DNA from: Crambe crambe
Taxonomy: Eukaryota; Porifera; Demospongiae; Poecilosclerida; Crambeidae
DNA: 64,000 nt
Direction: 5' to 3'
Assembly: GCA_963924555.1 (NCBI GenBank)
Contig: OZ004590.1
Coordinates: forward strand, 3,566,501 to 3,630,500
Program-made: the position numbers and the translations under genes
Part shown: positions 34,531 to 57,343 of the stretch, piece by piece
Layout of the letters: the number at the start of each line of letters is the position of its first letter
Numbering within the stretch: the first letter of the stretch is position 1
Notes under the pieces: generated by a model
The model's database searches: none
Told to the model about the DNA's origin: nothing
The model's input: only the letters and a program-made list of their open reading frames with translations

Positions 34531-34584
34531 CCGCATTATTATAAAATTTAATTAACGCGATGACTACTTGTCAGCGAGAAGAAT
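34531..34584 (+). promoter_or_regulatory. Core promoter of the 34585 cassette, TATA box at 34540
   Basis: TATAAA at 34540-34545 lies 45 bp before the ATG. The surrounding CCGCATTATTATAAA and TTTAATTAACGCGATGACTA are conserved at 60251-60290, 47 bp before the next signal exon. Confidence 0.5.
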
Positions 34585-37500
34585 ATGAAGAAAATGCTAA
34601 ATCTTGATAGTGTGCGTATGAACACAAGAGCAACCCTTTTTGTGGTGCTATTATTTGTCATATCAGTGAAAAGTCAACCATGTGAGTTACATGCTAGCTA
34701 CAATTATGCTATACTCATTTAAGTTGGCTAGTGTGGACTCTTCCTGGAAATTTTTTATAGCTATATATAGTGCTATTTTTATGACTGCAACTAAACTGTC
34801 ATTTGTTTCCAACTGGCCATTTTGATCACATCAGAATTTAGATGGGAATCTAGCTGTACTCTGTGAAGCTGTAAATCTGTAAATCAACTAGCTATGCAGT
34901 GTGCAACATTAGACAGTGAGCAAGTAAAATAGCTATTCCTGAGGCTCCAACTTCTTCAATTATGAATTAAGTGGCTGTTCCAGTCTGGCAGCTGCATAAT
35001 AGGAAGCCACAAAGCACTGGGGTGAGAGCACATGCTCAATTAACCCAAGGTCATCATGAAAGAAGAAGCTGCAATATTTCATTGGATGGCATAGGACCCT
35101 CAGTGCCCACTAAAAGCAATAATAATTATGTGCTTGCAGATATTGAGCAGATCACTGATGAGGAGTAATTATTTTATTTTGAATCATCTATAATGTTGAG
35201 CTAGCTAGCAGTGTCTGTACTACAGAGTCCACATTTTTATTTCGTTCTCATTTTATCAGTGCCTGCATGTAAAAATATACTGCTTGGGGAACTGCACAGA
35301 TATGATTAAGCATGCAGGTAAGAGTGTAGCAGCTAGCTAATGCATAAAGCCGTCATACACCTGATAGCTAGGGTCTTAATGTAGTATGGAGTAGGTAATG
35401 GTTGGCAGCACAGAGTGTGCATTATATGCTATAGTATAGTAGTACGGAGCATCGTGGCCTTCTTTCTGGGAATAAAATTTAAACAGGTAACAGCTTACCA
35501 CACCCAGCAATACACCAGAACAAGGATGACCCTAGCATAGATCCTGGACGTGTTGATAGCACGCACATGCGCATAATAATTTGGCATGTCATGTCGGAGC
35601 TCGATCACTAGCAGCAGTTAAAAGCCTGGCTTTCTGGTGACCAAAAGCTTTATCTAATGATATACTCAATTTCAAAGCTAGAAAATAGCGTCTAGACACT
35701 ATGCACCAATAGTTGAAGTGGTTCCTGCGAGAGGAATGACAAGACAGACAGAAGGACACAACTGAGTACTGTAACCCTCTAGCGCATGCATGCTGAGGGT
35801 TAATGACTGAAAAGAAACGCTGTTATGAAGGCTAATGTAAAAGCTGGGGACAGAAAGTTAGCAAATACTTTGGACAAAAATTGAATATTACAGAAAAGAG
35901 TGATTAGCTAGCTATTGCACCAGATTTTGGCTTCAAAATACAAGTACAGCGTCCAGAAGTGGCAGCTCATTTGAAGACAAAGTTTCTGGCTATTGCTCAG
36001 ATTTCAGAGGTGGCTGGGTTCAAAAGTAATTCCTGCTATATTAGGTGGTAATTATGTCATCACTTCTCCTATTGTTGCAGTTCATCTCAGTAACTAAGCT
36101 TATATGTCTACCATGCAAAATTTTTGAAACCACGCCCACTTTCACATAACCACACCTTTTTCACACCCCCTACATGAAGCATCACTGATAGCTTTAGTAG
36201 TACCTGTCAGCCAACATAATTTGGCCTGTATTCTGCTTACTCTTGGTTGATGGCAGACGTAAAGTGTATCGTAATAATGATCAGAGAGTGTGCTAGCTCT
36301 CTCTAAGTAGGAATGGCAGGTCAAGGGTCATAAGACTGTATAAACTAAAAACTTCTACCCTTATTCTATAGGTTCTCAGAAGGCTACAATGAATCATTAC
36401 ATTTAGAAGAATGTTCAAAAATCTAAATTCATTTGCTAACACGATATCTAAAATTGACTTATTCTGTTTTTTTATAATAATAATGATAATAATAATTATA
36501 ATAATAATAAATAAGATCGATGCCCTGACTTACTGGCTATAGTCATCAAATTCTGTTCGGGCCATCTGTTAGAGCGGCACCTAGAGGCTGATCTTTTGCT
36601 ATTAGTTTTGACTACAGTTCCATTTCACAATTCAGTGATATCGGCAGCACTCAGAACACTAGCTAATCTTTCTTCACAATTTTTTTGAAGCCGCACATAT
36701 GCTCTAAGGGGCAGGGCCACATAGAAGTCAGGCATGAGCTAGAGCAGCTGTTTCAACTTTGTTCTGGTCAGATGGTGTTTCAGTCATTCTTCAGTACAGA
36801 TTCTCATCCTACATGGCCAGTACTTAGCCTGTATGTAGCTAGTTTGCTCACTAGTGCCTCCAACCTGTCAGTGTGAACTTTGATTTCAGGCTCCCATTTT
36901 TGCTAGCTAAGTTAGCTCTTCAGTTTAATCGTTTAGCTAGCTATCTATTCTGGTCAGATAGTCTTCCAGCCACTCCTCAGTATAGATGCTCGTCCTACAT
37001 GGCTGTATGCATGCAGTCTGCTCACTTCAACATGCCAGTGTGCGCGCCTCCAACCTGTGAGTATAAAATAACTATAAAATGTAAATTCTGGACAAGTTTC
37101 AGTAAAAATACTGAGGAATCAGTATAAGGGAAAAAATGGAAACAAGTGAGCACAAAAAATTTCTTCTAAATAAAAAGTAAAGTAGGGATAGCCATAAAAT
37201 TTAGCTGCATTATTACTATTCCTATCACTCCTAGCCTCCTAATTGCAATAATCATACCTATATCTTAAATCCCTTACCCATACCCATCACCAAACTCAAG
37301 AACCACAGCAATATTACAAAAGTACTATTCCTACTTCACTCTCCTAATTTCAATAACCACACCCATATCACCCAACTTATTAATATTCCTACTTCTCTCC
37401 AGCCTCATAGAGGGGATAGTTTGCTTAGGTGTGGTTAATAAGGTTTTACTTCAGTTAAACTAAGTTAATGTTGGAACATTCAGGTGGGTGTGCAATGCAC

Positions 37501-39582
37501 ATGCACATTTGTTTTTGGGGCAATCAAGAGAGCATGTGCACATGTTATCCATGGTTACTTTCAAATTACCACAAACCACCAAGCAACTCTTGTGGTATAA
37601 CTCTCTCTCTCCCTACCCCTTCCATACGAATTTAGTTAGGTCTCCATCTCCTTAGGGAGACGTGATAGTACAGGATCCTGGCACTTCCTCCAATGTGATG
37701 GTGCTCAGGGGCAATTATCTCCAGAGATTTTGATTGGGGGCATGGTTGTGGGGGTGTGTCTTACAAGGGGTGCAAAGTTATCATAGGCCTCATCAATGAT
37801 TCAATTATGGCCAGGATCCTGTACACCCTCCACAGCTACACTCCCCTCATGTGTGGGAGTGGTTAACACGAGTATGGTTGGTATAGTTTAATTGGTCCAG
37901 AGATGAGGACAACATTAATTGGTTGTAGCTAATACACACACAATATATACATTAAGCATGCATGTCATGTGATTCACAGCCATGCCTATTCGGAATCTTA
38001 CGGTATGGTGCTCTGAGCGTGATGACCTAGGGTAAACTGAGCATGCACGATTGTCCCATAATGCTTGCATTTCCCTAGTAACCATGACTAAATATTCTCT
38101 ATATGCAGTGACTGTTTTTTGGCAAGGAAATGACATCACAAACAAACCAACACTGATATATCATGAGGAGGTTGAAACTGTTACATATAGAGATCCACCA
38201 AGACTCAGTAATCCTAATGGTACTGGTGGTCTACTCTGCAGCTCTACAGTCGGCGACATTGGTTGGTATCCAGGAGATGGTAGAATGGAACTCTTTGATA
38301 CTAATAGAAATGAGAGGCAAATCTACCAGATAATACCAAGTGGAAACCTCACAGCCCAAATTGTCCGTGATGGGAGAAATCTAGATATTTCAGGTCCACA
38401 AAATAATTTTCATAATGGATTGTTTACTTGTCGAAGGAATGGTGATATTTCAACAGCAATTCCTGTGGGATTTTATCAGAGAAATGGTGGGACAGGTGAG
38501 TTAATTAGTGTTTACAAGTGACATGAAATTAAAAAATGAAACTGTCATTGGGGCTTGCTTCACTCACTTCTCACTAGGGAGTTGGCTGAGGAATTTCTAC
38601 TACATTATGTATGTATACGTATGTTCTAATGTTGGAATTTCTTTGTGTGATGACCTTGGGTAAAATGAACATGTGCACTCACCCCATTATGCTAGTATAG
38701 AAATTAAGTCTGAATGGAAAGAATCTTGGAAACCTGGTGTTGCATGACCCAGAGGTTGTGAGTGTAGATTTGGGTGCAATGCAGCATGTAGGTATTTTTC
38801 ATTTATGTGGCAGATAGAGTATGGCTTTGCACCACCTGGTAAAGCATTGTGGGATGAGTGCTCATGCTCAGTTTACCCAAGGTCATCATGAAAAGAAGCT
38901 GCAACGTTAGAATGTACATACGAGATAAATATAATAGTAATGCTCCTAAACTTGAAAGCAGAATTGATCATCACCATAATTATGTTGACCTAAAGTTGTA
39001 TGTCACTTCACATCTTTGTGGTCACTTTTTAGCAGCCCCCACCTGCTAAAAAGGGGAGGGCTCTAGCCCCTCCCGCTCCCACCTACAGCCGTCACTGCAG
39101 GTGCCGAAATACAGTAGCTATAGCTATAATGCTGTGCAGACTGTATAGCTAACTATACTGCTATGATTCAGCTACATAACTAGCTAATGTAGTTATAGCA
39201 TTGAGTTTACTACAATTAAAAATTATTTACTCCAGCACGTGGTGTTATAACAAGACCTGTAGTAAGTGTTATATCATCTTCTTTTAATGCTACCCCTCCA
39301 AACTTCACTCTGGCCGGTGATACTGAAGGAGGTCCTCCTGAAAATTACACTTGGACAAGAAATGGTGCACCCATCACTAATGGTGGCTCATTCAGCATTT
39401 CCATTGGAGTAAGTGGTGTGACTGACCCGAGTGCATATGACAATAGTCGTTATCGGAGCACACTGACTGTGACTGGGAGGCTACCTGGAGTGTACCAGTA
39501 CTCTGTCTCCAATAGAGCCACACCCAACACTCTCACCTCCAACATCAATATAGGAAAAGGTCAGTACATTTTCCTTCTTTAG
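34585..39582 (+). CDS. Truncated RPTP cassette: signal peptide plus Ig1 and Ig2
   Basis: Exons 34585-34681, 38109-38495 and 39236-39559 are intact and in phase (all internal borders phase 1). They code MKKMLNLDSV..., a hydrophobic core LFVVLLFVISV, then Ig1 and Ig2 close to those of RPTP-1 and RPTP-2. No FN3, membrane or PTP exon follows before the next promoter at 43932. Two readings are possible. Without splicing at 39559 the frame adds seven residues and stops at TAG 39580-39582, giving a secreted 276-residue protein. Alternatively the phase-1 donor at 39560 (GTCAGT) could join the FN3 exon at 48370 or Ig1 at 45590 of RPTP-2, making a chimeric receptor. A remnant after duplication is the third option; the intact exons argue against long decay. 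Confidence 0.72.
36275..37195. mobile_element. ~0.9-kb interspersed element with palindromic end
   Basis: It begins at the palindrome CAGAGAGTGTGCTAGCTCTCTC (36281-36302) and ends near AAATTTCTTCTAAATAAAAAG. Copies or parts lie at 715-1075, 2985-3900, 16915-17035 and 61822-62590. It lies in intron 1 of the 34585 cassette. Confidence 0.65.
37190..37450. repeat. CCCTACTTCACTCC repeat family copy
   Basis: Blocks such as CATTCCTATCACTCCTA and CACACCCATATCACCCAACTT recur at 56150-56350, 58925-59140 and 62575-62900. Confidence 0.65.
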
Positions 39583-42027
39583 CAGATGAGGGTGTAATTC
39601 TAAATCTATAAAGGAAAAATACTTTTATTCTGAATAAAAAAGAGAAGTAGGGATGGCCATAGGTGGTAAAATAGGTCAGGCCAGTCAGGCCCAGGCCTGA
39701 CCAATATTATCGTTATTGTTATATGTGACCGGCTCCTCCGTCTGGTGAAAAAATCAATTATCAGATACGAGCACTAAAAGCTACAGCTTTGAAATTTGCG
39801 CAATAAAGAGCATACATAATAAATTTTACCATATTTTAATTTTCGCTGGACGGAGGGTTTTCCCAGAGTTGGTCACATATTCAGTGGCTATCAATCAATA
39901 ACAAAAGAAAGAAATTGTAGTGAATTTAGAGCTTCAGTGGTCTGGGGGATTACATTTCAATTTCGGCCTGACCAATTGAATCTTGCTTCCAACACTTCTG
40001 ATGGCTGTGTGTGGTTCAACAAGTTTGTCTTCAAAAAGACTTGTGCCTTGGCACTGGTAGAATATGAGGTCACACTGTTGAAATTCAATTCTAGCTAGGC
40101 TTATGTATAAACATCAAATAAAATTCAAGTTAGTCAGTGCCCTCTGATTGGCTTTTCAAATATTCACTTCCATGCAAGGCCTGTAGTTGATCTCATTGTT
40201 CTTGCCTTTCCTGATATCTGGCATCATCTGACATGACATGTGGTGTCTCTGTTCTTTACTCTCTCTCTCTCTCTCTTTCGGTGGTCTTGGCTTTCCTGTT
40301 GCCAGCTGGCCTGTCTTAAGCTTTCTTCACGATTAGACTGCCGTCTCTCTGTTCTGCTTTCTGGCATGTAGTCTGGTGCTCTTGCCTTTCCTGTAGCCTG
40401 GCTAATCGTGCCAGATGTACACTACCTTGTTGAAATGTTCACTTGTCGATCATAAATTCGCCTAGACTGCCATCTCTGCTGTTTATGTCCGTTACTTTCT
40501 CACTGTCTCCATACCCTCCAAGTTTGCAAAACCGAAATCAGGGACAAATCACACCCACCAATTAATAATGACCATACCCTCCATAAATCAATGAATATGA
40601 ATTATTTTTTTGGCTACAAGTAGGCATGGGGCTAAAATGCTCTATTATTCTATTCTGCAGTGCTCCTCCAGCAGACCCATTATTCTCTTTATATTAGCCT
40701 ATTATTCTCAACTATAAAATATCATGAAAGAGTATACTTTTTGTACTGTGCGTACACTGTAATAAAAACTCACTCAGAATGCACACACCAGTATCAATTT
40801 TGGTGCCAGCACTTGACAATCAGGCAAGGGCTAGGGAGGAGTGAGGTTATAGTAGCTATAATAATGACTGCAGCCTATTATTAGCCTGCTATCCCAGTGA
40901 AGTCCTATTATTCCATTATCATGCTAGCATATTAGCCCCATGCCTATAGCTACAAGTTTGGTGGTGCTTCAGTGCCTTCAGGCTCAGCCATAAAGAAGCA
41001 GTGATAAGATGAAGGATAAGGATACAGATTAGCCTGACAATTCAGTGAGTAATGTGTAAATTTCCAAGCAGTAGGCCTACATCCAATCTTTGTGGCTTGT
41101 AGAAGGCCCCCAGGCATAGACTGGACTAGCATGCAGCCTGTACTTGTGTATACTGTAGCTATTCAAGCCAGTGCTTATGTATACAATGAGCTATTCAGAC
41201 TCTTCCGGGACAAACACCAGCCCTGTACAAATCCGTGCGGGACGCGCGAAACTAAGTGCAAATCAGGGACAGTCCCGGAGGTTCCGGGACACTTGGAGGG
41301 TATGTGTCTCTTGGTCTATTCACGCTTGAATAACAGCTAGTTGTTTGCCTATCTATATCCATAGATAGTATCTACACGTGCAATGTAGATTGCGTGGGTG
41401 TAAGTTACATGTACGTGCTGGTGTGCTACTACTAGGGTATGTTCGTGTAACATATTCAATCGCAGTTGGTGAAGTCATTTGTGCTTTGACTTATTAGGCT
41501 AAGATATTGTGGCAGCTGCGGCTGTACAATGCTTACCACAAGCACTTGGAAAGCCAAGCGCCTACAATCCACTTAGCCCTCTATGACTAAATACTGTAGA
41601 AAGCAATAAGCTCAAGTTTGCTCTAAGTGCTATGGGCATGTTTCATTTGTGGGGTTAAAGGTCAAACGAACTTATGCACATGCGTATTATTAACTTGTCT
41701 GCTAGCTATGACGTACGTACCATAGTCCATATAAAAATATATCGCGAATCTCGATTGACATGACAAGTGTGTGCTCCCTCGCCAATTACGACGTACGTAC
41801 CACCAACACCACCACTAGTCTGGCGTAGCGGCGACCCTTACCAACCCAAGGGAGGGAAAAAGGGTCTGGGGACTAGCATCAACGACTTGTGTCTCACGTC
41901 AAGATTTTGACGCCACCAATCAGATCGCTTGATGGATAATTATTGCATTTTTGTGACGTACACGTGACGTATAATAATGAACGCGTGACCTTTAAGCTTT
42001 TCAATGCTCAAGATTGATTGCAGAGAC

Positions 42028-42225
42028 ATGGAAGATAAGTATTGTATCGGCTGTGGTAAGCTCATACAGAATGGATCTAGAAGAATCATATCTGACTCCA
42101 CAGACATTCTTTCTTTGTAGGAGGAAGCATTGAAGAAAATTTTGAAGAGACAAGGGCCAAGAAGATGATAGATTTATATGTAGAAAATGCTTTAATAGCT
42201 ATGTCAAAGTTAAGAAAAACTAGAG
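42028..42225 (+). CDS. Candidate two-exon gene fragment inside a TIR element
   Basis: ATG at 42028 opens exon 42028-42055, ending at a GTAAG donor in phase 1. A pyrimidine-rich TTCTTTGTAG acceptor leads to exon 42121-42225, which ends in phase 1 before GTATC. The product starts MEDKYCIGCGGSIEENFEE and continues for 25 more residues with a CxxC pair and a helical, charged tail. I recognise no family. No later exon is visible. It may be a gene fragment captured by the element, or chance. Confidence 0.25.
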
Positions 42226-42273
42226 GTATCTAGTCAAAGTTTTAATATAGCTACGTAGCTATCTAGCTAGTTA

Positions 42274-42595
42274 GGCCACTATTTATAGAATCCTAGTTTC
42301 CTGTCCAAGAAAATATCCACAAGTGCTGCGGGCGGGCGGTTATTATAATTATTCTATTACTGCTTCGTTGTTTGTCTCAAGGGTCCTGTCTTCATCATTC
42401 ACTAGTCTCGCGGCCCACGAGACTAGTTATTCACCACAGGCTTTCCCAAAAAGAGCTGCATGTGAAGCCAAATGTGCGCGCTCTACTGCGCGCATGAGCA
42501 ATGGCAGGCGCTGTAGGCAGTAATAATTTTTGATGCGGTGACATTTTCAATACGCGGGCGGTGGACAGGAAACAATTATTCTATTAATAGTGGCC
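42274..42595. mobile_element. Harbinger-like MITE, copy 1 (TTA target duplication)
   Basis: The ends GGCCACTATTTATAGAAT and its complement (ATTCTATTAATAGTGGCC) are inverted, flanked by TTA on both sides. Copies lie at 53328-53659 and 61492-61811. The inside holds the palindrome around CTAGTCTCGCGGCC. TWA target duplications and G-rich short TIRs fit PIF/Harbinger MITEs. Confidence 0.85.
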
Positions 42596-42844
42596 TTATA
42601 TTTAGCAACTTCACTACAGGTCATCCACCAGAATTTGAGCAAGGCTCTTGATACGCGCAAAATTATGATTATACCGCGCACGTGATAATCTTCTTGTAAA
42701 TTAACGTTCCTGGAATTCCAAAGTGATAAGTCGTTGATGCTAATGTCTCCAGACCCTTTTCCTTCCCTTGGGTTGGTAAGGGTCGCCGCTACACCAGACT
42801 ACACCACCACCATAGTTGATCCCGGCACTGTGCCTCGGCACTCC

Positions 42845-43090
42845 GGTGCTGAGGCAAAAAAGTTCAGCAACAAGAGAGTGACAGTCAAATAACCACTTAC
42901 CCATCACCAATATTACCAAACTATGAGCTAATTATTTTTACTTCACTCCCATGACAGGACAAGATGAGATATAAAGGGAGTGAAGTAGGAATAGTTAGTT
43001 CGTAGTTTGGTAGTATTGGTGATGGGCAAGGGGTTACTTGACTGAAGTTCACTGTCTTGCTGCTGAACTTTTTGAACCACACACAGCCAT
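42845..43090. mobile_element. Foldback MITE, CCCATCACCAATATTACCAA family
   Basis: Left arm about 42849-42955 and right arm about 42975-43085 pair across AAAGTTCAGCA, CCCATCACCAATA and TTACTTCACTCCC. It is related to the 37190-37450 repeats. Confidence 0.75.
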
Positions 43091-43387
43091 CCCTACTTCA
43101 CTTTAAAGGTTTTATTTAGAACAAATATTTTTTCCTTTACTTGTTCATCATCTTTTTCGATGTAATGCTCTATTTGTTACAGGCAACTAGATGCTGTGAT
43201 CCTGCTGTATCCAAGTTGAAGTTTACGTATTGTGTAATCAGTCATATCAAACGACTTTTCATTATAAACGATACAACGTCAGCCATTTTAATTAAAATGA
43301 CATCATTTGTGCGAGCGTCTGTTATGATCATGTGTGTGCCAGGCACAGCGCGCGCAGCAAAGATAATCAGGTCATTCATATAGCTAA

Positions 43388-43715
43388 AGAGTAAACAAAC
43401 AAGTGAAGGGAAAAAAATTTATGCTAAATGAAAAGGCCATGTAGGGTTAGTCTGTACTTTTGGCTGTAGCTAACAGTTTCTGTGAGCAGACATCAAACTA
43501 TGCTGCCTTCAATAAATTAATAATCCCCACTGCCTAACAGAACACTTTTACACTGACATGAATTAAAGCAGCTTGGTGGGAGGCAGTGATGTAGGGATTT
43601 ATTATTGAAGGCAACGTAGTTTTGATGTTCACAGAAACTGCTACAGGTAAAAGTACAGACTAACTACCCTACATGGCCTTTTTATTTAGCATAAATTTTT
43701 TTCCCTTCATACTTG
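43388..43715. mobile_element. Foldback MITE, copy upstream of the RPTP-2 first exon
   Basis: Full-length relative of 5360-5620: ends AAGTGAAGGGAAAAAAATTTAT and its complement, with GGCCATGTAGGGTTAGTCTG and its inverse inside. Confidence 0.8.
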
Positions 43716-43931
43716 TGATTAGTATTGCATCAAAGCTTGATTTATAACCAGACTGTACGCTCTGAGCATTGAGAGACCAACATCTTGAGAGAAAGCTAAT
43801 ACAAACCTCATGCATGATCGTCTGAACAGCTAGAGTAAGGCTTAAATAGTGAGTAACAAAGCTACAAAGTCGAGTTAAGACTCTGAGTTATGAGAAAGCA
43901 GAAAGAGAGCCAAGCTGCAAGATCAGGCATG

Positions 43932-43939
43932 TTATAATA
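43932..43939 (+). promoter_or_regulatory. TATA-like box of RPTP-2
   Basis: TTATAATA lies 37 bp before the ATG at 43969, a spacing similar to TATAAA before the 34585 and 60306 starts (45-47 bp). Confidence 0.4.
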
Positions 43940-43968
43940 ACAGAAAGTACACAAGCAAGAAAACCAAC

Positions 43969-45040
43969 ATGAAAGCCATAATAGCGAGTCTGCTGTTACT
44001 TTTTTACTTGTACATGTGGCCAGCTTGTACTTGTAAGGTCAAGGTCATGCCACATGCATACAAGTGAAAGGAAAAAAAAATTATGCTAAATAAAAAGGCC
44101 ATGTAGTGTTAGCCTGTACTTTTACCCAGCTAGCTATAGCAGTTTCTGTGAACAAAATGATCCCTACATCACTGCCTCCCACCAAGCTGCTTTGTCAGTG
44201 TAAAAGTTCTGCTCAGTTTAGGCAGTGATGTAGGGATTATTATTGAAGGCAGCATAATTTTGATGTTTGTTCACAGAAACTGCTATAGCTAGCTAGGTAA
44301 AAGTACAGGCTACACACTACATGGCCTTTTATTTAGCATTAAATTTTTTTCCTTTCACTTGTTTGTTTACTTTTTATATGACCTCATTTTTTATCTAGAG
44401 AGGCTAGCTGCCTCATACCCAGGCTCTAAAATTATGCAGAGGCGTAGCTAGCTCTAGGTACTGGTTGGCATGCGCGTACATGCATGTGATCGTGACAGAC
44501 GCTCGCGTGTGACAAATGATGTCATTAATTTCAAAATGGCTGACAGTATCGTTTGTAATGAAAAATCGTTAGATACAACTGATTATTTTGGAGAAAACCT
44601 GTGTAAATAATGATGGTAAAAGCACATTCTGTGATTATAACTGCACAAGTTGACATGAATTTGATTGTCGTATGTGAAAGGATCATGGAGTTACAGCCGT
44701 CAAAGAAGATGGATCTGATGATGAACGAATCCTAAAAATTTTAAATTTAGACAGCGGCTGGTGCCGATTGTTGACGCTGTTCTGGAGGAGTTTGAGTAGA
44801 CATATCATCTTGAGCCTGTAGCAAGAAGAGATGCAGAGAGTCCAGTTTGTATTATTCTAATGAGAGAAGCCATGCCCATTCCGTGCTAACCCTACATAGA
44901 GAGTGCTCTGATAACTATTTGTGCATGCTACTAATAAGACATACGTACATACCATATCATAGTCACCTTCGGCACTGTGACTCCAGTGCTGAGGCAAAAA
45001 TTATAGCATTTGAATGAAACATTTATGAAATTAGTTGTTC

Positions 45041-45076
<36 letters not shown>

Positions 45077-45473
45077 TGACCAGATGAAAATGGCAATTTT
45101 TGAAGTCACTGTAAAATGATACCGCTTTGTCTTCTGCTTTTCATACGTGAGTCCTAGCACATTGAAGGTGTTCTGTCTTCAAGTTAGGAGTTGCTGACTG
45201 TAGGAGGGAAGTATTCTGGAGTTATGAAAGAATGGGGCAATCTGATTACATTACATTATGACTTTTTTTCTACTTGGTATGCAACCCCTACATTATAATG
45301 AGTTAGCTAGCTGAGAATTTTCTCCTACGTATGTTTTTCATACATACGTACATAGCTAAATTAGTTTCTTTTGCAAAATGACTAGTCTCATGCACTGATC
45401 CTTTACCAACCGCGAGAGAAGCTACCCCTTTCTTGTAACTCATGGATGACATTTAAATTCTAACTCAAAAATG

Positions 45474-45509
<36 letters not shown>

Positions 45510-48500
45510 TGTCATCATCGTCGTCACCATCATCATCATCATCATACATCATTGCATGGATGATTATTATTATGATTCTTTCAATGCAGTAACTATTACT
45601 TGGAGAGGAAATAACATCACAGGCATTCCAACACTGATATATCATGATGAAGTTGAAACAGTTATGTATTCACCTCCACCAACACTCAGTAATCCTAATG
45701 GTCCTGGTGGTCTACTCTGCAATTCTACAGTTGGCCCTATTGCTTGGCATCCAGGAAATGGTTCAACAACAGTCTTTGATGCTAATATAAAAAGGGCCAT
45801 CTACCAGATAATACCAAGTGGAGACCTCATGGCCCAAATTGTCAATGATGGGAGAAATATTGATCTTTCACCATATCCTTATCATAATGGATTGTTTACT
45901 TGTCGACGGGATGGTGATATTTCAACAGCAATTCCTGTGGGATTTTATGATAGAGGTGGTAATGAGGGTGAGTAAATTTGTGTCTACAACGAGACTGAGT
46001 GATAATTGAACTGATAAGATTATGAAAGAAGATTGAACCATCTAAATTTAATGCTCAACAACTGAATGACTAGTTTGTATAGGTATGAGACCCTTTCCAT
46101 TCCCAGTCTGGCCCACAAGACTAAAATTGCCTTATCATAATAATAATTGCAGTTTAGGTTAGGCAAAGTGGGCAATTTGTGTTTATAATTTGTAATTACA
46201 GCTTATTTGTAATGAGCCTTTACACGTAATTAATTTTATTGTGGAAGGTGTCTACAAATATAAACTAGCGACAAAAATTCCCATTTACTAGCTAGTTGGG
46301 TATGATCCATATAATTACATGCATTCTCTGAAATGGTTTGTTTTCTCCCAGTACGTGGTGTTGTTACAAGACCTGTAGTAAGTATCACATCATCGTCATT
46401 CATGGCTGCCTCCCCATCCTTCACTCTGGCTGGTGATACTGAAGAAGGTCCTCCTGAAAATTACACTTGGACAAGAAATGGTGCACCCATCACTAATAAT
46501 GACTCATTCAGCATTTCCATTGGAGTGAATGGTGTGACTGACCCGAGTGCATATGAAAATAGTCGCTATCGGAGCACACTGACTGTGACTGGGAGGCTAC
46601 CTGGAGTGTACCAGTACTCTGTCTCCAATAGAGCCACTAACAACACTCTCACCTCCAATATCACTATAGAAGGTCAGTATTGATATTGAACTACATGATT
46701 TGATTATAATAAGGGGAAAAGCATTTCGTGAAATGAAAAAAAGATGTAGGGATGACCACTGCTCGAAATAAGAAGGATGGAAATGGGATCAATCTTTGTT
46801 CTGTATATCCAGCCAACGATCCCTACATATACGCACTATAATCTGAAGCTACCCGACGTATATGTAGGGATTGCTGGCTGGATACACAGAACAAAGATTG
46901 ATCCCATTTCTATCCTTCTTGTTTCCTTACTTTTTTGAGCAGTGGTCATCCCTACATCTTTTTTCATTTCACGAAATGCTTTTTCCCTTACTTGTTCCTG
47001 GTCTTTTTTTCCCCTCTCTTTTATGGTTTTAGCTATGTATAGAGTTCATTCTTTGTATGTGTATGCAGGGACAGATGAAAGAAGAATAGTTCTCCAATAG
47101 CATACCAGCCCAATGATTATCAACGAGTCAAACGGTGTTGTGTTATTGTTGAGCTATACTTGGAGGTCGAAGATGCTGAAATAGAGTCTACCGGTAGATG
47201 GATTGGTGAATCTAAAATCCCCGAGTCGATAGTGTAGTCCATTATCTAGCTAGCTAGCTAGAGATCGCTGAGTAATATTATAATTTCGAATAATCATGCG
47301 TATTATAGAAAAGATGGCTTCCTAATTGTATTATTCGAGTGCTGTGCTCCGTAGTGTCTCCTTTTTCATCGACTCTTTCGAGGATCAACGAGTAGAAAAG
47401 ATCATAGTTGGTAGAATTTGGAGTGGATTTATCCAGAAATCATAGCTGTAGCTTGAGTGGTTTGAGAGATATGGTTGTCAAAAAAGAATAACGATAACAA
47501 TAGACCTCAAACTTGGTCTGCACTTTGTAGTAGGCTCTAGTAGGCTGGATAATCATTCACAGTAGCTTTTGTTAGGTCTAATAAGTGGGGGAACTAGAAT
47601 TTCACTTTTGTATTAGTCTATAGGCGGCGCATGCGGCCGTCCGAGTCATCCCTACATAGAGAGTGCTACCGCACTCTCTGATAACCAAAGTCTCATATCA
47701 CCAGCAGCAGCAATGACCAATCATACACTTGTACAGCTATTACCTTAACTATCTGCCATGGATCTGAACTAGGCCTGAGGCTATTATGCCGGCATAATTT
47801 TGGGCATAATCGGTACTTCCATTCTGCTGGCATAATGCTGGCATAATGTTGGCATAATAGGTAAAATTTGAGCATAATCATGAAGACTTCTCTGTGTTGA
47901 AGTGGTGGAAGCAAAATGCTCCGCACAAAAAGTCTTACTAGTTTAGCCATCTTCAGCTGCCTCTGAACCTGTATTTTCATTGTTAAAAGCTTCATTTAAT
48001 GTGCAGCAAGACAGTACCCTACAAGATTCATCCCTTATGCTGCAGTACAACAAGCGTTGAACTTGAATTGCACATGTACACACTTTCATAATACTCATTC
48101 GTCAAAAAAGTTTTGAGCATAATAGGTACCTAAATGAGCATAATAGGTAAAATTTTTGGGAATTGCTCAAAAGCATAATAGGCTAAAAAAAGAGCATAAT
48201 AGCCTCAGGCCTAATCTGAACCCTTATAAAGGGTTGCATGCATGCCAATTTAGGAAGTACATATTAGTGATATTAATAGCCTTAGGTTATGGTACCACTT
48301 GGCTTATTGAGGTCTAATTGTTGGTTGCATGCAGTGGCCCGCATTGCTATGTAGTAACTTTTGGTGCAGGTGCTCCTACTAACCTTATGGCCAAACAAAA
48401 TGGGATCTATAGTGTGCTAGTCTCCTGGACTCCACCATCACCTCCACCTAGTATGGACTACCAGATAAAAATTAACTCAACAAATTTCAGTGCTGCAACT

Positions 48501-51500
48501 TCTTCTGCAACTTCACTCACTATATCACTGCAACCAGGTGTGCACAATATTTGTCTGATGGCCCTTTCCCAGCACTATCCTAGTGATGAGTCAGTGGAGG
48601 TCACTGTGAAAGGTAACTACCTCCAGACATGCACTCTATCTTTGTAAAATTTAATGATTGTGATAATTTATTATGAATAGATTTTCTAATGCCAACTGTC
48701 ACTTCATCATTATTAACTAACACATCAGTCAACATATTGTGGTCCCAGCCTGAGGGTAGCCTTACAGCAGATTATTACACCATATCAATACAGCGTAGTG
48801 ATCAACAATTCTGTCTCATATCTCTGGATAAAAGAACGATGAACATCAATGCTACCTTTATGGATTTCTCCAACCTTTTTGGATCTAGTACCTACTCTGT
48901 CATGATCACTGGCCAGGCATATAACAATTCCAGGACATCAACTTACAATTTCAGCACACCTTCAGCTGGTAAGACTGGCTTAGTCTCTTGGTGAGCAACA
49001 TAAGCCCATACACTTATTACTAGGACAATGTGCAACATTTGAGTCATAGCGAGTGAGCGAACAAGCTAGAGCTCATATTGTGTTGAGCTCATTTTGTGCT
49101 TCAACTCCTTGTGCTACTTAGAAGATTTTGCTGTGAGTTATGTAAGTGGCAGGCTGCTGCATACATAGAAAGCTGTAATGCTTATCACAAAGCACTTATA
49201 TAAGCCTAGTGCCTACAATCCACTTAGATAAGTTCCCTTAGACCGTAGAAATCAATCAAGGTGATTACAATTAATTGGAGCATGCTCATTATACACACAG
49301 GGTGCTACTACATATTATACAACATATACTTTAGCCCTAGCCCTACCATACCGTACGTACATACGCCTGTGGCATTTTGGAGTGTAGACCTAGATATACA
49401 TATATATTTTTACAATTTCAATGAGTCATGACCTGAGAGTCAGTTCACTCGCTCTGCTCGCTTGCTGAATTAGTGGAGGAAAACACTGCATGTCATAATT
49501 ACATAATGGTATGTTGGATTGCACATGTGCGGTTCAAGTGGCAGAATATAAGTGTATGCAGAATTCATCCAGGAAGAGAGAGCAGTTAAATACAGTGGGA
49601 CTGGTTTTTCTCATGGAAGAAACAAACAATATCTGAAAAAAAGACAAGCTTGTTGTGCATTGCTGTTATCTTGTTGTTTGAATTTATTTAATACAAGAGG
49701 AGCCTAGGGTATCTAGGAAGGACTGTCCAATCAGGTTACAATGAAGCCAAAGAAATATTTTCCTTGGGAATTATGGCAATAATGAGTCCTCGTCCTTGGG
49801 CTGTGCCCTCAAACTTGGGAATTTACGTATTACCATAATTTCCTTGGCACCATGCAATAACTATTGTACATTTAAATCTTACGTAACTAGGGAAATTATG
49901 AACCAAACATGTATGCTCAGCCATCATATTAATAAAAGTATGTGAAGTGTCCCATGCCCAGGCTTGTCATGTGGCTAAATATGCAGGCAGCAATCCAAAA
50001 TCTTCTTGATGTGCCATGATAATTCTCAAAAGAAGTAACTTATAGACTAGTCCATACATGCACTTTGTTTTGGGTATTCACTTGGAACCAAGAAGTATGT
50101 GTTATGGAATAGAGCAATATAAAGGGCCTCCAGAACCAGCACACAATATTAGTTATCTGATGGTTCTTCCGATTAAGTTAAGTGCCAATTTGAGCTCAAA
50201 TAGATTAGTATTTTAAGTAAAAATTTAATCCAAACTATACAGCCCCCACTGGACCTCCTCAGGCTATTGACTATACAGTGACTGCTAGAAGTGTCAGTTT
50301 GTCCTGGAATGAGATTGAGTGCATTGAACGTAATGGGATGATCTCTAATTACACTGTGGAATTCTTATCATTGGGAGGAAGTGTAATTGCTGGTGTGCTG
50401 ATGGTGAATGAAAGGAGATTCACTGCCAACGGACTCACTCCTTTCACTAACTACACCTTTCGAGTAGCTGGAGTGAATAGCAATGGCGCTGGACCTTTCT
50501 CTGTCCCGACAATTATTGAGACACCTGAAGACAGTACGTTAGATTTAAGTGCGTGTTTACCAAATACGTAGATACTCTCATAATATTTTTGTAGTTCCAG
50601 GACCTGTGCTAAACCTTTCCAGCAACACACAGTTCACTTTTATCAATCTCACTTGGGCTCCCCCTGCTGATCCCAATGGAATCATTTTAGGATATGAAGT
50701 CAACTACAGAGTTACTGATAGACTGGCAATGAATATAGCAAGGACTACCATGTATACCATCTCAGACCTAGCTCCTGGTACTAGAGTGTCTATTTCAGTC
50801 AGTGCCTACACTAATGCAGGTCGAGGAGCTCCTATTCTGACTAATCAGATCACACATACAGGTATATATGAGCTGAAGGATTAATGAGTTTTTAAAAAAC
50901 ATGTAGCGGTGTGGAGGGTTAGCTTCAATGATGGATAATTCCAATAATCAGTCAAGCCACCAAAAATATTGAGCATTGAAAATTATTCTCACAAAGCCAA
51001 TTAATACATATCTTAGACACAGGTACACTTTTTCAATTAATTGAATCAATTAATATTCATACACCCTATAATCCTGGACACTATAATAGCTATCCAGCAT
51101 CTTGATTTTTGTGCAAAAATGGACTTGTATTCCTTGATTTCATCTGGCTTCCTTGATTCTTTTGAAAGACAAAAAAAAAATGATCAGATGTACGGATTTG
51201 ACCATGATCTCTACAGTGGAACCTCTAATAAAGGATATTCTGAATCTAAAGTACTATTGCATATACACTCTATACAAAACCTCCAAAAGATGACAACCTC
51301 TCTACAAAGGACAAAAAGGTGGGTCACAAGTGTGTCCATTATTTGGAGGTTCCACTGCAGACCATGCATTAAGGTGTCCAATATAGACTGCTGCTCAATA
51401 AACTAAATCATACATGCTCTCTTTCAAAGTCTTATCCTCTGAATAAACTTTGTGCATTGTGTATGTTATAAACACAATATGAAAATTATAAGGACTTTCT

Positions 51501-54500
51501 TATAGTGGCATCTCATAGTCTCAAGATATAACTTGCAGCATATGCACATGAGATCTATTGATGTAGCTATGGTGATGAAAGTTCAAGTTCAGAGGTCAAG
51601 TCTTACTTCAGTCAGAGTGTCATGGGATGGAGTCAATATCACGGAAATAACCAGCTACATAGTTTACTACAGTGTTGTTGATGGAAATGGACGACAGAAA
51701 ACAGTTCCCCAAAATCAAACCTCGGTAGTGATTGATAACTTGATGATAGACGAACAGTACCATTTTCAAGTTGTAGCCATAGTAGAGGAAAGAGGTAAAC
51801 TTATCATGGGACAAAGATCAATGGAAATCACTCTTATGCCGATAGAAACAACCAGTTCAGGTATAACTTTGCTTGTCCATTAATTTAACAAATAAGAATG
51901 AGTAGGTACTATTTATACTGATTATTAGATGTTGGTGGAATAATTGGAGGAATAATAGCAGCCATTGCTGTTGTGGCCATCATAGTGGTGATCATCTTAC
52001 TGGTGTTGTGGTCGCAAAGGTAAAATGAATAATTCTGAATAGTTTTTAAAAAACTATTTTCAATTCAGGAAGTATCGTGCTCCTGTTAAGAAGTCTAATG
52101 TGGACACTATACGTTATGGAGTCCCTCTGCTCAGCAATAAAAGGCCTTCAGATTCAGGTATGTTTCTCACTAACTGTTTGAAGCAGGTTCATGGCCTTAA
52201 GTGGCAATATGGCAAGTATTCTAGTAGTTTTCCCTAACTAATGACCATAGTTGAATGATATTTCCACTCTGTTCTCTCAGAGCCATTGATTGAGGAGTTT
52301 CCTGAGGACACTAAAGCCATTGAGGGCAGGGGAGTCTTCTTTAAGGTGGTTGTGAGTGGGAAACCAGTCCCCTCTATTGCTTGGTTCCACGACGAGAGTG
52401 AAATCATGTCAGAGTATTCTGTGGAGATTAAAGGAGATGGCACTCTCTCCATTCTGAGTGTAGAGAAGAAGCATGGAGGGATTTACAAGATGGTGGCCAA
52501 AAACAGTGTAGGGAGTGTTGAGCAGCAAGTGAGGCTACATGTCACTATGGAAGGGGAGGAGACTGCAGATGGGAGGAAAATCATAGAGTTTTCTCCCATC
52601 CCTATGGCAGAGTTCGGGGACTATGTGGTTTTGAATCACAATAACCAGAACCAAGGATTCAGGGATATATTCCAGGTACTAGCTATTGTAGAGAATGCTA
52701 TGTAATATCACTACAATACTATCACAACTGGTAATTTAGGCCCTGGAGAGTGGTGACAAGTACTCCAAGAGTGTAGGACTAAGTCCTGAATACAAAAAGC
52801 TCAACAGATTTGCAAATATCACTGTTTGTAAGTTGCAAACTTCCATCAAAATAGCAAATGACTGCCACGTATTTATGGCTCTACTTTTATTTGTACCTTT
52901 CCAGATGATCACAACAAGATCTTGTTGAATCCCATTTCTGGTCATGATGACTGCAAGGGAGAGTTTGTGAATGCATGCTACATTGATGTGAGTATTATTT
53001 TTGTTTTGCATACAAGAGTATATGTAGTTTCTTTTTGGGCATGATGGGTTTAATATGACTATGAAAGTCTGCATGACAGTCCCTTTACTCTTTGTTATAA
53101 TAAAGATTATGTGCGTGCATGCAATGAATGATTCTTCTTTTACTTCAGGGCTATTTGATTCAAAAGAAATTCATTGCCACTCAAGGTACTGTTGTCATAG
53201 TAGCATATCCATAAATGACCAGGGTTCTACCCAGGATTCTTGAGTGATGGCTGAAATTTATTTTTCCATGCCTATTTTGTTTCATTTAGGTCCCTTTGGC
53301 CATCACTCTGATAATGTACAAGCCTAAGGCCACTATTATTAGAATGATTGTTTCCTGTCCACCGCCCGCGTATTGAAAATGTCACCGCATCAAAAAATAT
53401 TATTACTGCCTAGCGCCTGCCATTGCTCATGCGCGCAGTAGGCGCGCAAATTTTGGCTTCAAATGCAGCTCTTTTGAGAAAGCCCGTGCACCGTAGTGGT
53501 GAATGAGTAGTCTTGCGGGCCGCGAGACTAGTGAATGATGAAGACAGGACCCTTGAGACAAACAAAGAAGCAGTAATAGAATAATTATAATAACCGCCCG
53601 CCCGCAGCACTTGTGGATATCTTCTTGGACAGGAAACTAGGATTCTATAAATAGTGGCCTAAAGTTACTGCAGCTAAGTATAATGAGTGGTGGCCAAAAT
53701 AGCCAAGTGGTGGCCAAAATGGCCACTGTCGACCAGTATGGGCAGAACCCTGAATGACTTATGGTTATCTCCTACCAATAAATAGTAACCATTCCAATCA
53801 TGCAAGATGTTGATTGATATTACGATATTACATGTAATTTACTAAAATATTTCAGGTCCCATTCCAAAGACTCTTGTTGATTTTTGGAGGTTGATCTGGC
53901 AGGAGAAACCCCCCACCATTGTCATGGTGACCAACTTGGAGGAAGGGAGCAAGAAGAAGTGTGAGCAGTATTGGCCAGAGACTGGGAGCACCAATTATGG
54001 TCCCTTCAAGGTCACCATCACTGAAAATCAGAAATTTGCTGACTACTGCATTAGGACATTACAAGTTGCAGTAAGTAGAGAAATATTACACAGAGCTAGT
54101 GTCCAGCAACACAGTAGCTAGCTGGGAAGACAGAATTCAATGAGTAGCAGTGAGTAAATTGACTTGATTCTGTAGTGTGGGGGTGTATCCCCAACAGCGT
54201 CCTATAAATTCTACTTGCGTGCTACCTTGAGTGATTTTAATTGCCCTCTTATTCAGCTTCAAGGAAGTAACTGTCCTCACAAGCTGAGACAATTTCATTT
54301 CACTGCCTGGCCAGATCACGGAGTCCCTGATTATGCCTCACCCATGCTGGGCTTTTATGGGAGGATATGTTCTTCCCACAACCCTCAGAGAGGTCCCATC
54401 CTTGTCCACTGCAGGTCAGATTATAAACAATAAAGCAATAACATTTCAAATACTATTTGTTATCTGAAAACTCATTGTATGTATGCACTAATAACACATG

Positions 54501-57343
54501 CAGTGCTGGTGTTGGACGTACTGGTACTTTTATCTGCATTGACTATGTCCTGGAGCAGATCAAGAAGGAGAATGTAGTGGACATAGCAGGAGCCATCAAC
54601 AAGATGAGACATCAACGCATGAAGATGGTTCAAACACCAGTTAGTTTATAATGATTTATCATAATAATTATAATTTCTTGGGGTGGCTATTTTGGGCACA
54701 GATAAAGTAATAACTAGGTCTGAAATTTGGATTAATGATAGCTAGCTACTTACTGTATTAGTTATTTCATGAAAATAATTAATTCTATGTTATGCAAGAA
54801 TGACTTGAAAATTTCCCAATTTAGGTATCTAACAACTTTCTCTCCATGCATTATTAGCTATAATGACCATTATGCTCTACGTACATAATTTAATTACATC
54901 ACAGGAGCAACTGATTTTCCTCCATGACGCTATTCTGGAGTCGGTGACATGTGGGAACACACAAATCACTGCTGCTGACCTCCGTATGGTGATAGGGAAG
55001 TGTGGGAAAGTGGATCCCTCTACTGGTGTCACACACTTCCAGTCACAGTTCAATGTGAGTGCAGTCCTTTAGGTCGTAGTAAAGCCTGCCCTATTTTGAC
55101 ACTAAGCCCATTTTAATCAGTGTGCTGAAACTTTCAGGTCCAGCCAGAAATATTGCTAATTACTTTTCAATGTGGAACTATTTATTTCCAATTGCACGTG
55201 TCCACTTTACTGATTCGTCATGTCAGTCAGTAGCTATTGTGTCTGTGTCTGCATAGATTCTGGAGAAGGTGTCCCCCAAGGCTAGTGAAGTCTTATGTAC
55301 TGAAGCTAGGAAATATCCTGACCGAAACCGAAGGAGTGATTACTTGCCATGTGAGTTAAACTATTAGTCTTCACTAGTAAGTTATATGCCCACTAACAAA
55401 ATTAATTCGATCTGACACTGAGAGGATATATGTTCTCTACTTCTATAGAGTCATAGCATACCACCTAAAACCATCCCAGCAATAGTAATCCTCTATACAG
55501 AGAGCCTGACACCTGACATTTTCCAGCCAATATTGGCACAATTATGTCTGGTCATTATTTATTTGTAATTGTCAGGACAAGAATATTGGTCGAAATGCAC
55601 GTGTCCAGTTAAATGTTAGGACAAACTATGTATACTTAGTATGGACGTCATGTCCGGTAATAAGCACTGTCTATGTACATGTACTTCATATTACAGCTGA
55701 TCGCTATCGTGTCATCCTGAATGACCATCCTAACTATGTCCATGCTGTATTTGCTCCTGTAAGTGAGACCTATTCATAACTGTATCATTGAGTCACATGC
55801 ATGCAGGCTAACCTCTCTTTTATCATGATTGATAGGGTTACAAGCAGCAAAAGGCATTCATTATAGCCGAGGGGCCCATGGCATCCACTGCTAGGAACAT
55901 ATTGAAGATCCTCTATGACAGGAAGTGTGGGGCTGTAGTCATGCTCTCTGACCTTGTCGAGAATGGAGAAGTAAGATGCTTTCAAAACATACAAACTTTT
56001 GAGTTTAAGTTTGAAGCAGAAAATGATCAGGTTCCATTGTTTACCTTAAGAGAGGTAGAAGTACTTATTTTTAAAAAATGTACAGAGCCAGCAAATAAAT
56101 TTCTGAGGGGTCCAATTTAGTTATAGTTACGAGTGCACAAAATTTCTTCCGAATAAAAAGTGAAGTTGGGGGATAGCCATAAATTTACTACTCATAGCCC
56201 TCCTAATTTCAATATCCACACCCAACTTAAATCCCTACTTCACTCCCCCTTGAGCAACAAGTAGTGAGTCAAGTAACCCCTTACCCGTACCAATCACGAA
56301 CCACAGCAATATTACGAAACTACTATTCCTACTTCACTCCTAGGCCTCCTAATTTTATTGGAAATACATGAGGAGAGGCTGTTCATTTAAACCAAGAGGC
56401 AAAGCTGAGTGGTCTATGTGGACTGCCACAAGTGTATTTCCCCACATAATGTTAACTGGCTTGTGCTTTCAAAACTATATAACTGCATATGGTATAACTA
56501 CAGTTGCCATGTTTCAGCAGTATAAACTGTAGGCAGTGCCTTTGATGTATGGCTTCACCATGGTACAAGCATCTAATTTAAAATAATAACATTCACCATA
56601 GGAGACTAGCATCAAGTACTGGCCAGCCTCTGGACAAGTCGGTCAGTTTGGGGAGTATACAGTGGACTTGATAAGTGAAGAGATCTTGGGAGGATTCACT
56701 ATCAGGACACTCAGTATATTGGAGAAAAAGGTAGCTTACGTAGAATCATACCTTCATGCATATGAATTGATATACATAATGAAATCTTGCAGTCCAAAGT
56801 GGCACATCGAGTGACTCAATTCCACATCACCTGTTGGGATCCATCTGGACAATGCTCCAACCTCAAGAGTGTCGTGGATACTGTTGATGAGGTTGAAAAA
56901 ATCCAGAGGAGAACTGGAAATAAACCCATACTCATACATTGCAGGTTAAATATTAAGGAAAAGAAAAGAGCCTCAAAGTCTTATCATTTTTCATTGCAGT
57001 GACACAGTGACCAGGAGTGGGATGTTCTGTGCCATAGCCACCATCATTGATCGATGCAAAATAGAGGGAGTGGTGGATGTCTTCCAAGTGGTCAAGGCTC
57101 TCCGTGTCCAGAAACCTGGAGCTGTGCCTACTCTGGTAAATGTTTATATTCATTTGTGTTCTTAGCTTATCATGAAAGAAGGTATCCTAAATTCCACAAC
57201 ATTAATGACTCAATAAATCCCTCCCTCCCTCCCTCCCCCCTCCCTTTCTGCTCAATTTTCAGGCAAACTACCAGATGATATTTGATGCCACTCTAACCTT
57301 CTTGGACTCATTTGACACCTATGCTAACTTCCAGAATATGTGA
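43969..57343 (+). CDS. RPTP-2: receptor-type tyrosine phosphatase, Ig2-FN3x5-TM-Ig-PTP-PTP
   Basis: A paralogue of RPTP-1 with the same 25-exon plan. The exons total 4377 nt, giving 1458 residues. The first exon, 43969-44032, codes [20 protein letters not shown], a classic signal peptide unlike those of its paralogues, and ends in phase 1 at GTAAG. Order: Ig1 (to 147), Ig2 (to 254), five FN3 (to 715), membrane helix (about 718-743), linker, cytoplasmic Ig (about 777-877), PTP D1 and D2. D1 keeps D1068, Cys1100 and Arg1106. D2 carries the same WPD-to-WDP swap and [10 protein letters not shown] signature as RPTP-1. The stop TGA is at 57341-57343. Ig1 and Ig2 exons are much closer to RPTP-1 than the FN3 exons are. 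Confidence 0.9.
44060..44380. mobile_element. Foldback MITE, copy downstream of the RPTP-2 first exon
   Basis: Same family as 5360-5620 and 43388-43715. It starts 28 bp after the signal exon donor, in intron 1. Confidence 0.8.
45041..45548. repeat. (GAT)n and (CAT)n tracts before the RPTP-2 Ig1 exon
   Basis: (GAT)n at 45041-45075 and (CAT)n at about 45472-45548; the second ends 42 bp before the Ig1 exon. The two tracts are complementary and could pair in the transcript. Confidence 0.9.
46710..47686. mobile_element. 1-kb element, inverted second copy of 1672-2722
   Basis: The hairpin (46710-46991) comes first and the palindromic end (AGAGAGTGCTACCGCACTCT, about 47657-47676) last. It lies in the RPTP-2 intron between the Ig2 and first FN3 exons. 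Confidence 0.8.
51929..52675 (+). other. RPTP-2 membrane helix, linker and cytoplasmic Ig exons
   Basis: Exon 51929-52019 codes a Gly/Ile/Val helix ending WSQR. Exon 52069-52157 continues KYRAPVKK. Exon 52281-52675 codes the I-set Ig domain ([27 protein letters not shown]) and the PTP entry segment. As in RPTP-1, the disulfide cysteines are replaced (FKVVVSG and YKM). Confidence 0.88.
53328..53659. mobile_element. Harbinger-like MITE, copy 2 (TAA target duplication)
   Basis: Inverted relative to the copies at 42274 and 61492. It ends in GGCCAC and GTGGCC and is flanked by TAA on both sides. It sits in the RPTP-2 intron between the D1 exons ending 53185 and starting 53856. Confidence 0.85.
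56130..56360. repeat. CCCTACTTCACTCC repeat family copy in an RPTP-2 intron
   Basis: It shares AAATTTCTTCCGAATAAAAAG, CCCTCCTAATTTCAATA and CTACTATTCCTACTTCACTC with copies at 37190, 58925 and 62575. Confidence 0.6.

What the first reader, a model, noticed from the sequence alone, without database searches (positions are those of the whole stretch)
34585..48612. Promoter-bearing Ig cassette that could splice onto RPTP-2
Seen: 34585-39559 has its own TATA-like promoter, signal exon, Ig1 and Ig2, all intact, but no downstream receptor exons. It ends in phase 1, the phase at which RPTP-2 Ig1 (45590) and FN3-1 (48370) begin. Inference: it may act as an alternative 5' variable cassette joined to a shared FN3-TM-PTP constant part, in the style of clustered protocadherin or UGT1 genes. 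The copy at 60306 suggests more cassettes beyond the window.
Basis: partly seen in the sequence, partly recalled or inferred. Interest (0 to 1): 0.8.

Follow-up and report, generated by a model that had tools for sequence, protein, structure and literature searches.

The report
Front half of a four-Ig receptor gene
The 'spare' immunoglobulin cassette is most likely just the start of the neighbouring receptor phosphatase gene of a sponge, not an alternative module, but the gene belongs to a very large receptor family whose outermost domain looks shuffled and highly variable, as one would want for telling self from non-self.

Summary
What fails is the premise that RPTP-2 has its own start: the supposed one begins inside a dispersed repeat. 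In 264 kb, eight homologous signal exons serve eight FN3-bearing receptors (broken fragment R6b aside); the three receptors without one (R2, R3, R5) are the three with an extra Ig pair upstream (A, B, C), each pair led by a signal exon. A compact relative on C1 reads signal-Ig1-Ig2-Ig1-Ig2-FN3 with 184 bases between the pairs. So the cassette is best read as the constitutive 5' half of a four-Ig receptor phosphatase gene, 34585-57343 (open model), not a protocadherin- or UGT1-like cassette. RNA is still needed. The wider surprise is the family: 60 listed Ig1-Ig2-FN3 units on one contig of a sponge, a mosaic, hypervariable Ig1 exon (all 70 complete copies distinct), and a mostly different second set in public data: a candidate self/non-self receptor family.

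The parts
34540..34545 (+). TATA-like box of the gene
   Evidence: TATAAA; kept in copies B and R4, changed (TATGAA) in copy C
34585..34681 (+). signal-peptide exon, phase 1 end; the only homologous signal exon of this gene
38109..38495 (+). first Ig1 exon (hypervariable Ig domain), phase 1-1
   Evidence: AlphaFold model at mean pLDDT 88.6, best structural matches are Ig domains at moderate Z
39236..39559 (+). first Ig2 exon, phase 1-1; ends GGA AAA G, not GAA G as FN3-proximal copies do
   Evidence: weak Pfam Ig_3 (E 2.4e-4, below cut-off)
39560..39582 (+). possible read-through tail GQYIFLL-stop if the donor at 39560 is not used (secreted form)
   Evidence: shared by A and C, one residue different in B
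39560..45589 (+). intron joining the two Ig pairs (inferred)
   Evidence: inference
43891..43988 (+). dispersed repeat inside that intron
   Evidence: 39 other listed matches in the genome to this part, up to 95% identity, a lower bound
   Evidence: first 20 bases lie in the repeat; 43987-44049 matches one place on C18 at 87%; chance rate
45590..45967 (+). second Ig1 exon
46352..46672 (+). second Ig2 exon, ends GAA G
48370..48612 (+). FN3-1 exon
   Evidence: Pfam fn3
48681..51860 (+). FN3-2 to FN3-5 exons (48681-48968, 50243-50533, 50595-50861, 51567-51860)
51929..52157 (+). transmembrane exon (51929-52019) and juxtamembrane exon (52069-52157)
   Evidence: hydrophobic run followed by basic residues, read from the sequence
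52281..52675 (+). I-set Ig domain exon, placed after the transmembrane exon, so cytoplasmic
   Evidence: Pfam I-set E 2.6e-18
52740..57343 (+). tandem tyrosine phosphatase domains D1 and D2, stop codon ending at 57343
   Evidence: Pfam Y_phosphatase, 2 stretches, E 8.7e-128
60306..60399 (+). signal exon of copy B, start of the next four-Ig gene (B + R3)
63613..64000 (+). Ig1 exon of copy B (runs past the window; Ig2 follows in L015)

Best explanation
The cassette and 'RPTP-2' are one gene, about 34585-57343, for a receptor tyrosine phosphatase with four extracellular Ig domains (Ig1-Ig2-Ig1'-Ig2'), five FN3 domains, one transmembrane helix, a cytoplasmic I-set domain and tandem phosphatase domains. 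Transcription starts just upstream of 34585; the donor at 39560 is spliced across a 6.0 kb, repeat-containing intron to the second Ig pair at 45590. Shown: exon structure, phases, one homologous signal exon, no homologous second one, the same order in a relative. Inferred: the splice itself, the start site, and that the receptor recognises something on cells or microbes through the variable Ig1 and signals through its phosphatase.
For: (1) Homologous signal exons (ending V-x-[ST]-Q-x, phase 1) stand in front of R1, A, B, R4, C, R6, R7 and R8; none was found in front of R2, R3 or R5, only 1, 1 and 2 unrelated signal-like candidates, about what chance gives. Eight starts for eight FN3-bearing receptors; that the three without are those with an extra pair upstream has a chance of 1 in 56 (my count, 3 of 8; fragment R6b, which has neither Ig1 nor start, left out). 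(2) RPTP-2's candidate start begins in repeat DNA, and 43940-44060 matches only itself in the 264 kb. (3) C1 gene in L070: signal, Ig1, Ig2, 184-base gap, Ig1, Ig2, FN1, with phase-1 borders as I read them. (4) The joined model is open over 1733 residues. (5) The 10 intact FN1-proximal Ig2 exons looked at (R1-R8, 2 on C1) end GAA G; none of the 5 first-position ones does. R4's pair groups with A, B and C in the Ig2 tree (95/95) yet precedes FN1 and ends GAA G. (6) The A-type start leads a single-pair receptor in R4 (FN1 11.5 kb on).
Against: No RNA data. The pair-to-pair gap here is 6.0 kb, not 184 bases, so a second start would fit. A, B and C share a stop as the eighth codon past the donor, and A and C an AATAAA about 50 bases on, which would suit a short secreted product, although the AATAAA stretch is itself dispersed repeat. 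A, B and C are one lineage, so not three independent cases. In the second C1 gene (L071) the first Ig2 matches in two pieces in different frames and may be broken, and its 508-base gap between the pairs holds a signal-like candidate, unrelated in sequence.
Confidence: 0.8

Rival explanations
1. One reading: the cassette is an alternative 5' module with its own promoter, joined to the RPTP-2 FN3-TM-PTP part in place of RPTP-2's own signal and Ig pair.
For: All exons are phase 1-1, so 39559 to 48370 keeps the frame (model open). Own TATA-like box and signal exon. In R4 a pair of the same lineage is followed by FN1 with no second pair found between.
Against: RPTP-2 lacks a homologous start of its own; the cassette's Ig2 lacks the GAA G ending of all 10 intact FN1-proximal copies looked at; most listed receptors carry one pair with one body.
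Confidence: 0.1
2. The cassette is a separate small gene for a secreted two-Ig protein (a soluble decoy), ending by reading through its donor.
For: Signal exon, two Ig domains, shared in-frame stop eight codons after the donor in A, B and C; AATAAA about 50 bases on in A and C.
Against: It would leave R2, R3 and R5 without a homologous signal exon; the AATAAA stretch is dispersed repeat and not at that place in B; the donor stays intact in all three.
Confidence: 0.06
3. The cassette is a dead fragment left by unequal crossing-over between tandem receptor genes.
For: The array is full of partial copies: phosphatase pieces at 57806-58093 and 59728, an isolated D2 set at 85883-86794 beyond the window, and a copy (R6b) with an in-frame stop in Ig2.
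Against: Signal exon, both Ig exons and their splice sites are intact in A, B and C, the TATA-like box in A and B; A and B both stay open although their Ig1 exons differ at about 48 sites.
Confidence: 0.04

Closest known systems
LAR-type (type IIa) receptor tyrosine phosphatases: LAR, PTP-sigma, PTP-delta
   Different: Four Ig domains in two repeated pairs; an I-set domain on the cytoplasmic side; dozens of tandem paralogs with a hypervariable Ig1. Orthology not tested.
Clustered protocadherins and UGT1 (recalled)
   Same: Tandem copies of 5' coding units, some with promoter-bearing first exons
   Different: 60 of 67 listed units have an FN1 of their own; no shared constant exons
Hydractinia allorecognition complex (Alr genes; passages of PMC11067881 seen)
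   Same: Clustered genes for single-pass Ig-type membrane proteins; alleles there so divergent that they stayed on separate scaffolds, a mostly different second contig here
   Different: Other phylum and a tandem phosphatase as cytoplasmic part; no genetic link to fusion or rejection is known here

Membership tests
receptor-type protein tyrosine phosphatase | extracellular Ig/FN3 part, one transmembrane helix, cytoplasmic tyrosine phosphatase domains | tested here: met
   (fn3 5 stretches, Y_phosphatase 2 stretches, both above cut-off); transmembrane helix read from the sequence
LAR (type IIa) RPTP | three N-terminal Ig domains followed by FN3 domains and D1-D2, with no Ig domain behind the membrane (definition recalled) | tested here: not met
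   four Ig domains in the joined model and an I-set exon after the transmembrane exon; the number four rests on the inferred splice, the I-set place does not
protocadherin/UGT1-type variable-cassette gene | several promoter-bearing variable first exons share one constant 3' exon set | tested here: not met
   60 of 67 listed Ig1 units on C13 have an FN1 before the next Ig1; among the listed matches only A, B and C are complete Ig pairs without
protocadherin/UGT1-type variable-cassette gene | alternative first exons spliced to the same acceptor | not testable with these tools
   no RNA data
four-Ig receptor with one start | one signal exon in front of two Ig pairs and none between them | tested here: met
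   no homologous start between the pairs in A-R2, B-R3, C-R5 or in the C1 gene of L070; unrelated signal-like candidates do lie between the pairs in R2, R3, R5 and L071
allorecognition receptor family | extreme polymorphism between individuals or haplotypes | tested here: inconclusive
   a 3.47 Mb ENA contig carries 45 Ig1 cluster representatives, 38 of them under 97% identical to any of 70 here, but its source is unnamed and cluster representatives over-state the difference
allorecognition receptor family | genotype controls fusion or rejection | not testable with these tools
   needs grafting and genotyping

The most novel reading that the evidence does not exclude
The array (60 listed Ig1-Ig2-FN3 units on one contig) is a diversity-generating receptor system of a sponge: short gene-conversion tracts shuffle segments of the Ig1 exon between tandem receptor phosphatases, haplotypes differ in most members, and the receptors tell self from non-self or recognise microbes. 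Doubling of the Ig pair, as in the window, would be one more way to combine variable domains in one receptor.
Probability: 0.35. Interest if true: 0.88.

Novelty: new variant of a known kind. Interest (0 to 1): 0.5.

Why it matters
For the finding itself: it removes a supposed alternative-cassette system and gives one clean, testable gene model. For the family: a passage of PMC12065747 calls the mechanisms of invertebrate allorecognition a complete mystery and says that the candidate proteins of sponges, cnidarians and ascidians are not conserved; a tandem family of receptor phosphatases with a mosaic, hypervariable outermost Ig domain is a concrete new candidate in a sponge that grafting plus genotyping could test. 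None of the ten searches of the held library (one search was aimed at Hydractinia) listed a paper whose title or abstract start describes such a sponge family; I saw passages of four papers only, and a word search in a fifth gave nothing. Most subscription papers are not in that library.

Tried and rejected
Tried without use: folding Ig1 from three sequences (mean pLDDT 39.1; not searched). A full-length protein search (the 7992 candidates sharing most words were scored) gave 24 proteins, none a close relative; the best has 33% identity over 28% of the query. The first promoter alignment used wrong locus coordinates for R4 and C and is void; one search replaces it. A first translation of the COX1 locus was out of frame and was repeated. 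The COX1 search gave 90% best identity to an unnamed record and 87% to a cluster named Demospongiae, so I say demosponge and no more. A paper on sponge aggregation factors was not held.

Considered and weakened: positive selection on Ig1. Among the 11 Ig pairs of the studied C13 stretch (55 comparisons) mean dN is 0.190 and dS 0.128 for Ig1, against 0.102 and 0.126 for Ig2. Over all 70 Ig1 sequences pN is 0.170 and pS 0.160, pN above pS in 1545 of 2415 pairs, and alignment inside the variable stretches is doubtful. I therefore claim shuffling and relaxed or diversifying constraint, not proven positive selection. The variable stretches lie between predicted strands, not in the loops that correspond to antibody CDR1 and CDR3 (my reading), so I do not call them CDRs. 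The 70 Ig1 sequences are the complete ones of 79 matches; 9 partial matches were dropped first, so 'no stop in 70' is partly by selection. A, B and C are alike in start, signal exon and Ig2 tail, but C's intron between Ig1 and Ig2 is not alignable over much of its length (298 of 534 aligned bases identical to A), so the three are not simple recent copies.

Rejected: the minus-strand Ig1 units without FN1 (4 of 44) as further cassettes, because their Ig1 is partial or no Ig2 was listed with them.
Full report
What was checked. The window is C13:3566501-3630500 (+) of a 143 Mb genome in 119 contigs. The mitochondrial COX1 on contig C119 places it among demosponges (90% to an unnamed record, 87% to a cluster named Demospongiae). 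I fetched the flanks and studied 264 kb of C13. Positions below are window coordinates unless marked.

TATAAA lies at 34540-34545; the signal exon is 34585-34681; Ig1 is 38109-38495; Ig2 is 39236-39559. All borders are AG/GT, all phases are 1, and tblastn found no FN3, I-set or phosphatase exon between 39559 and the RPTP-2 Ig1 at 45590. The preceding receptor gene ends at 34371, 213 bases before the ATG.

The premise that RPTP-2 has its own start does not hold. The candidate signal exon is 43969-44032. The stretch 43891-43988, which holds what would be its promoter and its first 20 bases, is repeated across many contigs at up to 95% identity (39 other listed matches, a lower bound), and 43987-44049 matches one more place on C18 at 87%. 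The candidate has no match at the sister genes (43940-44060 matches only itself in the 264 kb). By contrast, promoter plus signal exon of the cassette recurs at B, C and R4, and in part at R1, all in this cluster.

Counting starts. A scan for signal-like exons with a phase-1 donor found one homologous exon (ending V-x-[ST]-Q-x) in front of each of R1, A, B, R4, C, R6, R7 and R8 and none in front of R2, R3 or R5, which have one, one and two unrelated candidates. The stretch holds eight FN3-bearing receptors R1-R8. One of them (R6) seems cut short, R8 runs to the end of the stretch, and a broken copy R6b (Ig2 with a stop, FN1, no Ig1) is left out of the count. So there are eight starts for eight receptors, and the three without one are those with an extra Ig pair upstream. 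If starts had been lost at random this would be 1 chance in 56 (my count). The scan gives 12 candidates in 92.6 kb of the opposite strand, so about 0.77 is expected in RPTP-2's upstream interval; one such hit there is no surprise.

A relative elsewhere shows the order. On C1 (L070, minus strand) one gene reads signal exon, Ig1, Ig2, a 184-base gap, Ig1, Ig2, FN1, FN2, with a similar signal exon (ending VQSQP) and phase-1 borders from signal to FN1 as I read them. There is hardly room for a promoter and signal exon in 184 bases, and the scan found none there. A second C1 gene (L071) has the same order, but its first Ig2 matches in two pieces in different frames and may be broken, and its 508-base gap holds an unrelated signal-like candidate.

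A small supporting sign. The 10 intact FN1-proximal Ig2 exons that I looked at (R1-R8 and the two on C1) end GAA G, which gives Glu-Gly when joined to FN1; none of the five first-position Ig2 exons does (A, B, C end Gly-Lys, the two on C1 Leu-His-Tyr). R4's pair groups with A, B and C (95/95), yet it precedes FN1 and has the GAA G ending. The ending thus goes with position. A, B and C are related copies, so these are not five independent cases.

Gene model. Joined, the exons give an open reading frame of 1733 residues: signal, Ig1, Ig2, Ig1', Ig2', five FN3, membrane helix, I-set domain, phosphatase D1 and D2. Two shorter arrangements are also open, because the Ig and FN3 exons are symmetrical, so skipping cannot be excluded. 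The I-set exon lies behind the membrane exon and recurs in the sister genes R1, R3, R4, R5, R7 and R8, which is unusual for a receptor phosphatase as far as I recall.

Genome-wide layout. On C13 there are 67 Ig1 units (23 plus, 44 minus strand) in the listed matches; 60 have Ig2 and FN1 before the next Ig1 (20 of 23 and 40 of 44; in two of the 60 the Ig1 match is partial). For Ig2 and FN1 only 150 of 151 and of 201 candidates were scored, so counts are lower bounds. The complete Ig pairs without FN1 are A, B and C. Among the 40 scored of 330 candidates, the coding 3' tail of the cassette Ig2 was matched only at A, B and C. A protocadherin-like or UGT1-like design would need many variable units before one constant part; that is not what is seen.

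The wider surprise. Ig1 exons of this family are hypervariable mosaics. A and B share 728 of 735 aligned bases in the Ig1-Ig2 intron but differ in Ig1 at about 48 sites (38 nonsynonymous, 10 synonymous); the drop in identity lies in the Ig1 exon, with a smaller dip in Ig2 and lower identity again further upstream. Copy C's Ig1 shares 139 identical bases with a gene about 550 kb away (L040) and another 146 with B. The 70 complete Ig1 sequences are all distinct and none has a stop (9 partial matches dropped first), and association between variable columns falls with distance (r -0.209, 0 of 500 permutations as low). This is what short-tract gene conversion would leave. Evidence for positive selection is only moderate.

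A second version of the locus. A profile search returned 95 Ig1 cluster representatives. The 43 on two contigs (2423547 and 546146 bases) are identical over the aligned part to copies here; 45 lie on a 3471111-base contig, and of these 4 are identical, 3 are at 97% or more and 38 are lower (72-97%) to the best of the 70 here; the other 7 are on five further contigs. The likeliest reading is the other haplotype or another individual, hence extreme allelic diversity; the record is unnamed and representatives at 90% identity over-state differences, so this is a lead.

Verdict. The cassette is most likely the constitutive 5' half of a four-Ig receptor phosphatase gene (0.8). The interest lies in the family.

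Noticed in passing
Ig1 exons, window 38109-38495, 45590-45967, 63613-64000 and 67 others (L030-L086 and the stitched C13 stretch): Ig1 is a hypervariable mosaic exon within otherwise similar genes; A and B introns are 99% identical while their Ig1 exons differ at about 48 sites.
   Followed up: partly
contig of 3471111 bases behind P0147, P0150 and others: A contig that this assembly does not seem to hold carries 45 Ig1 representatives, mostly different from those here: probably another haplotype or individual.
   Followed up: partly
52281-52675: An I-set Ig domain sits between the membrane helix and the phosphatase domains, on the cytoplasmic side, and recurs in sister genes.
   Followed up: partly
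57806-58093 and 59728-59853: Broken phosphatase D2 pieces between RPTP-2 and copy B, one of them inverted: debris of tandem duplication.
   Followed up: no
L017:1883-2794 (window numbering 85883-86794): A lone D2 phosphatase exon set directly before R4's start, the same layout as the end of RPTP-1 before the cassette.
   Followed up: no
L012-L014 and window 6204-6494, minus strand: 29 FN3-like matches in tandem on the opposite strand upstream, several with the same identity value: another large FN3-repeat gene.
   Followed up: no
43399-43716 and 44057-44376: A self-complementary repeat of about 320 bases, two copies flanking the supposed RPTP-2 signal exon, with relatives elsewhere in the cluster.
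   Followed up: partly
G000 contigs C9 (2.6-3.4 Mb) and C12 (0.07-0.38 and 2.5-3.2 Mb): Further large clusters of phosphatase-domain exons: 183 matches genome-wide, a lower bound.
   Followed up: no
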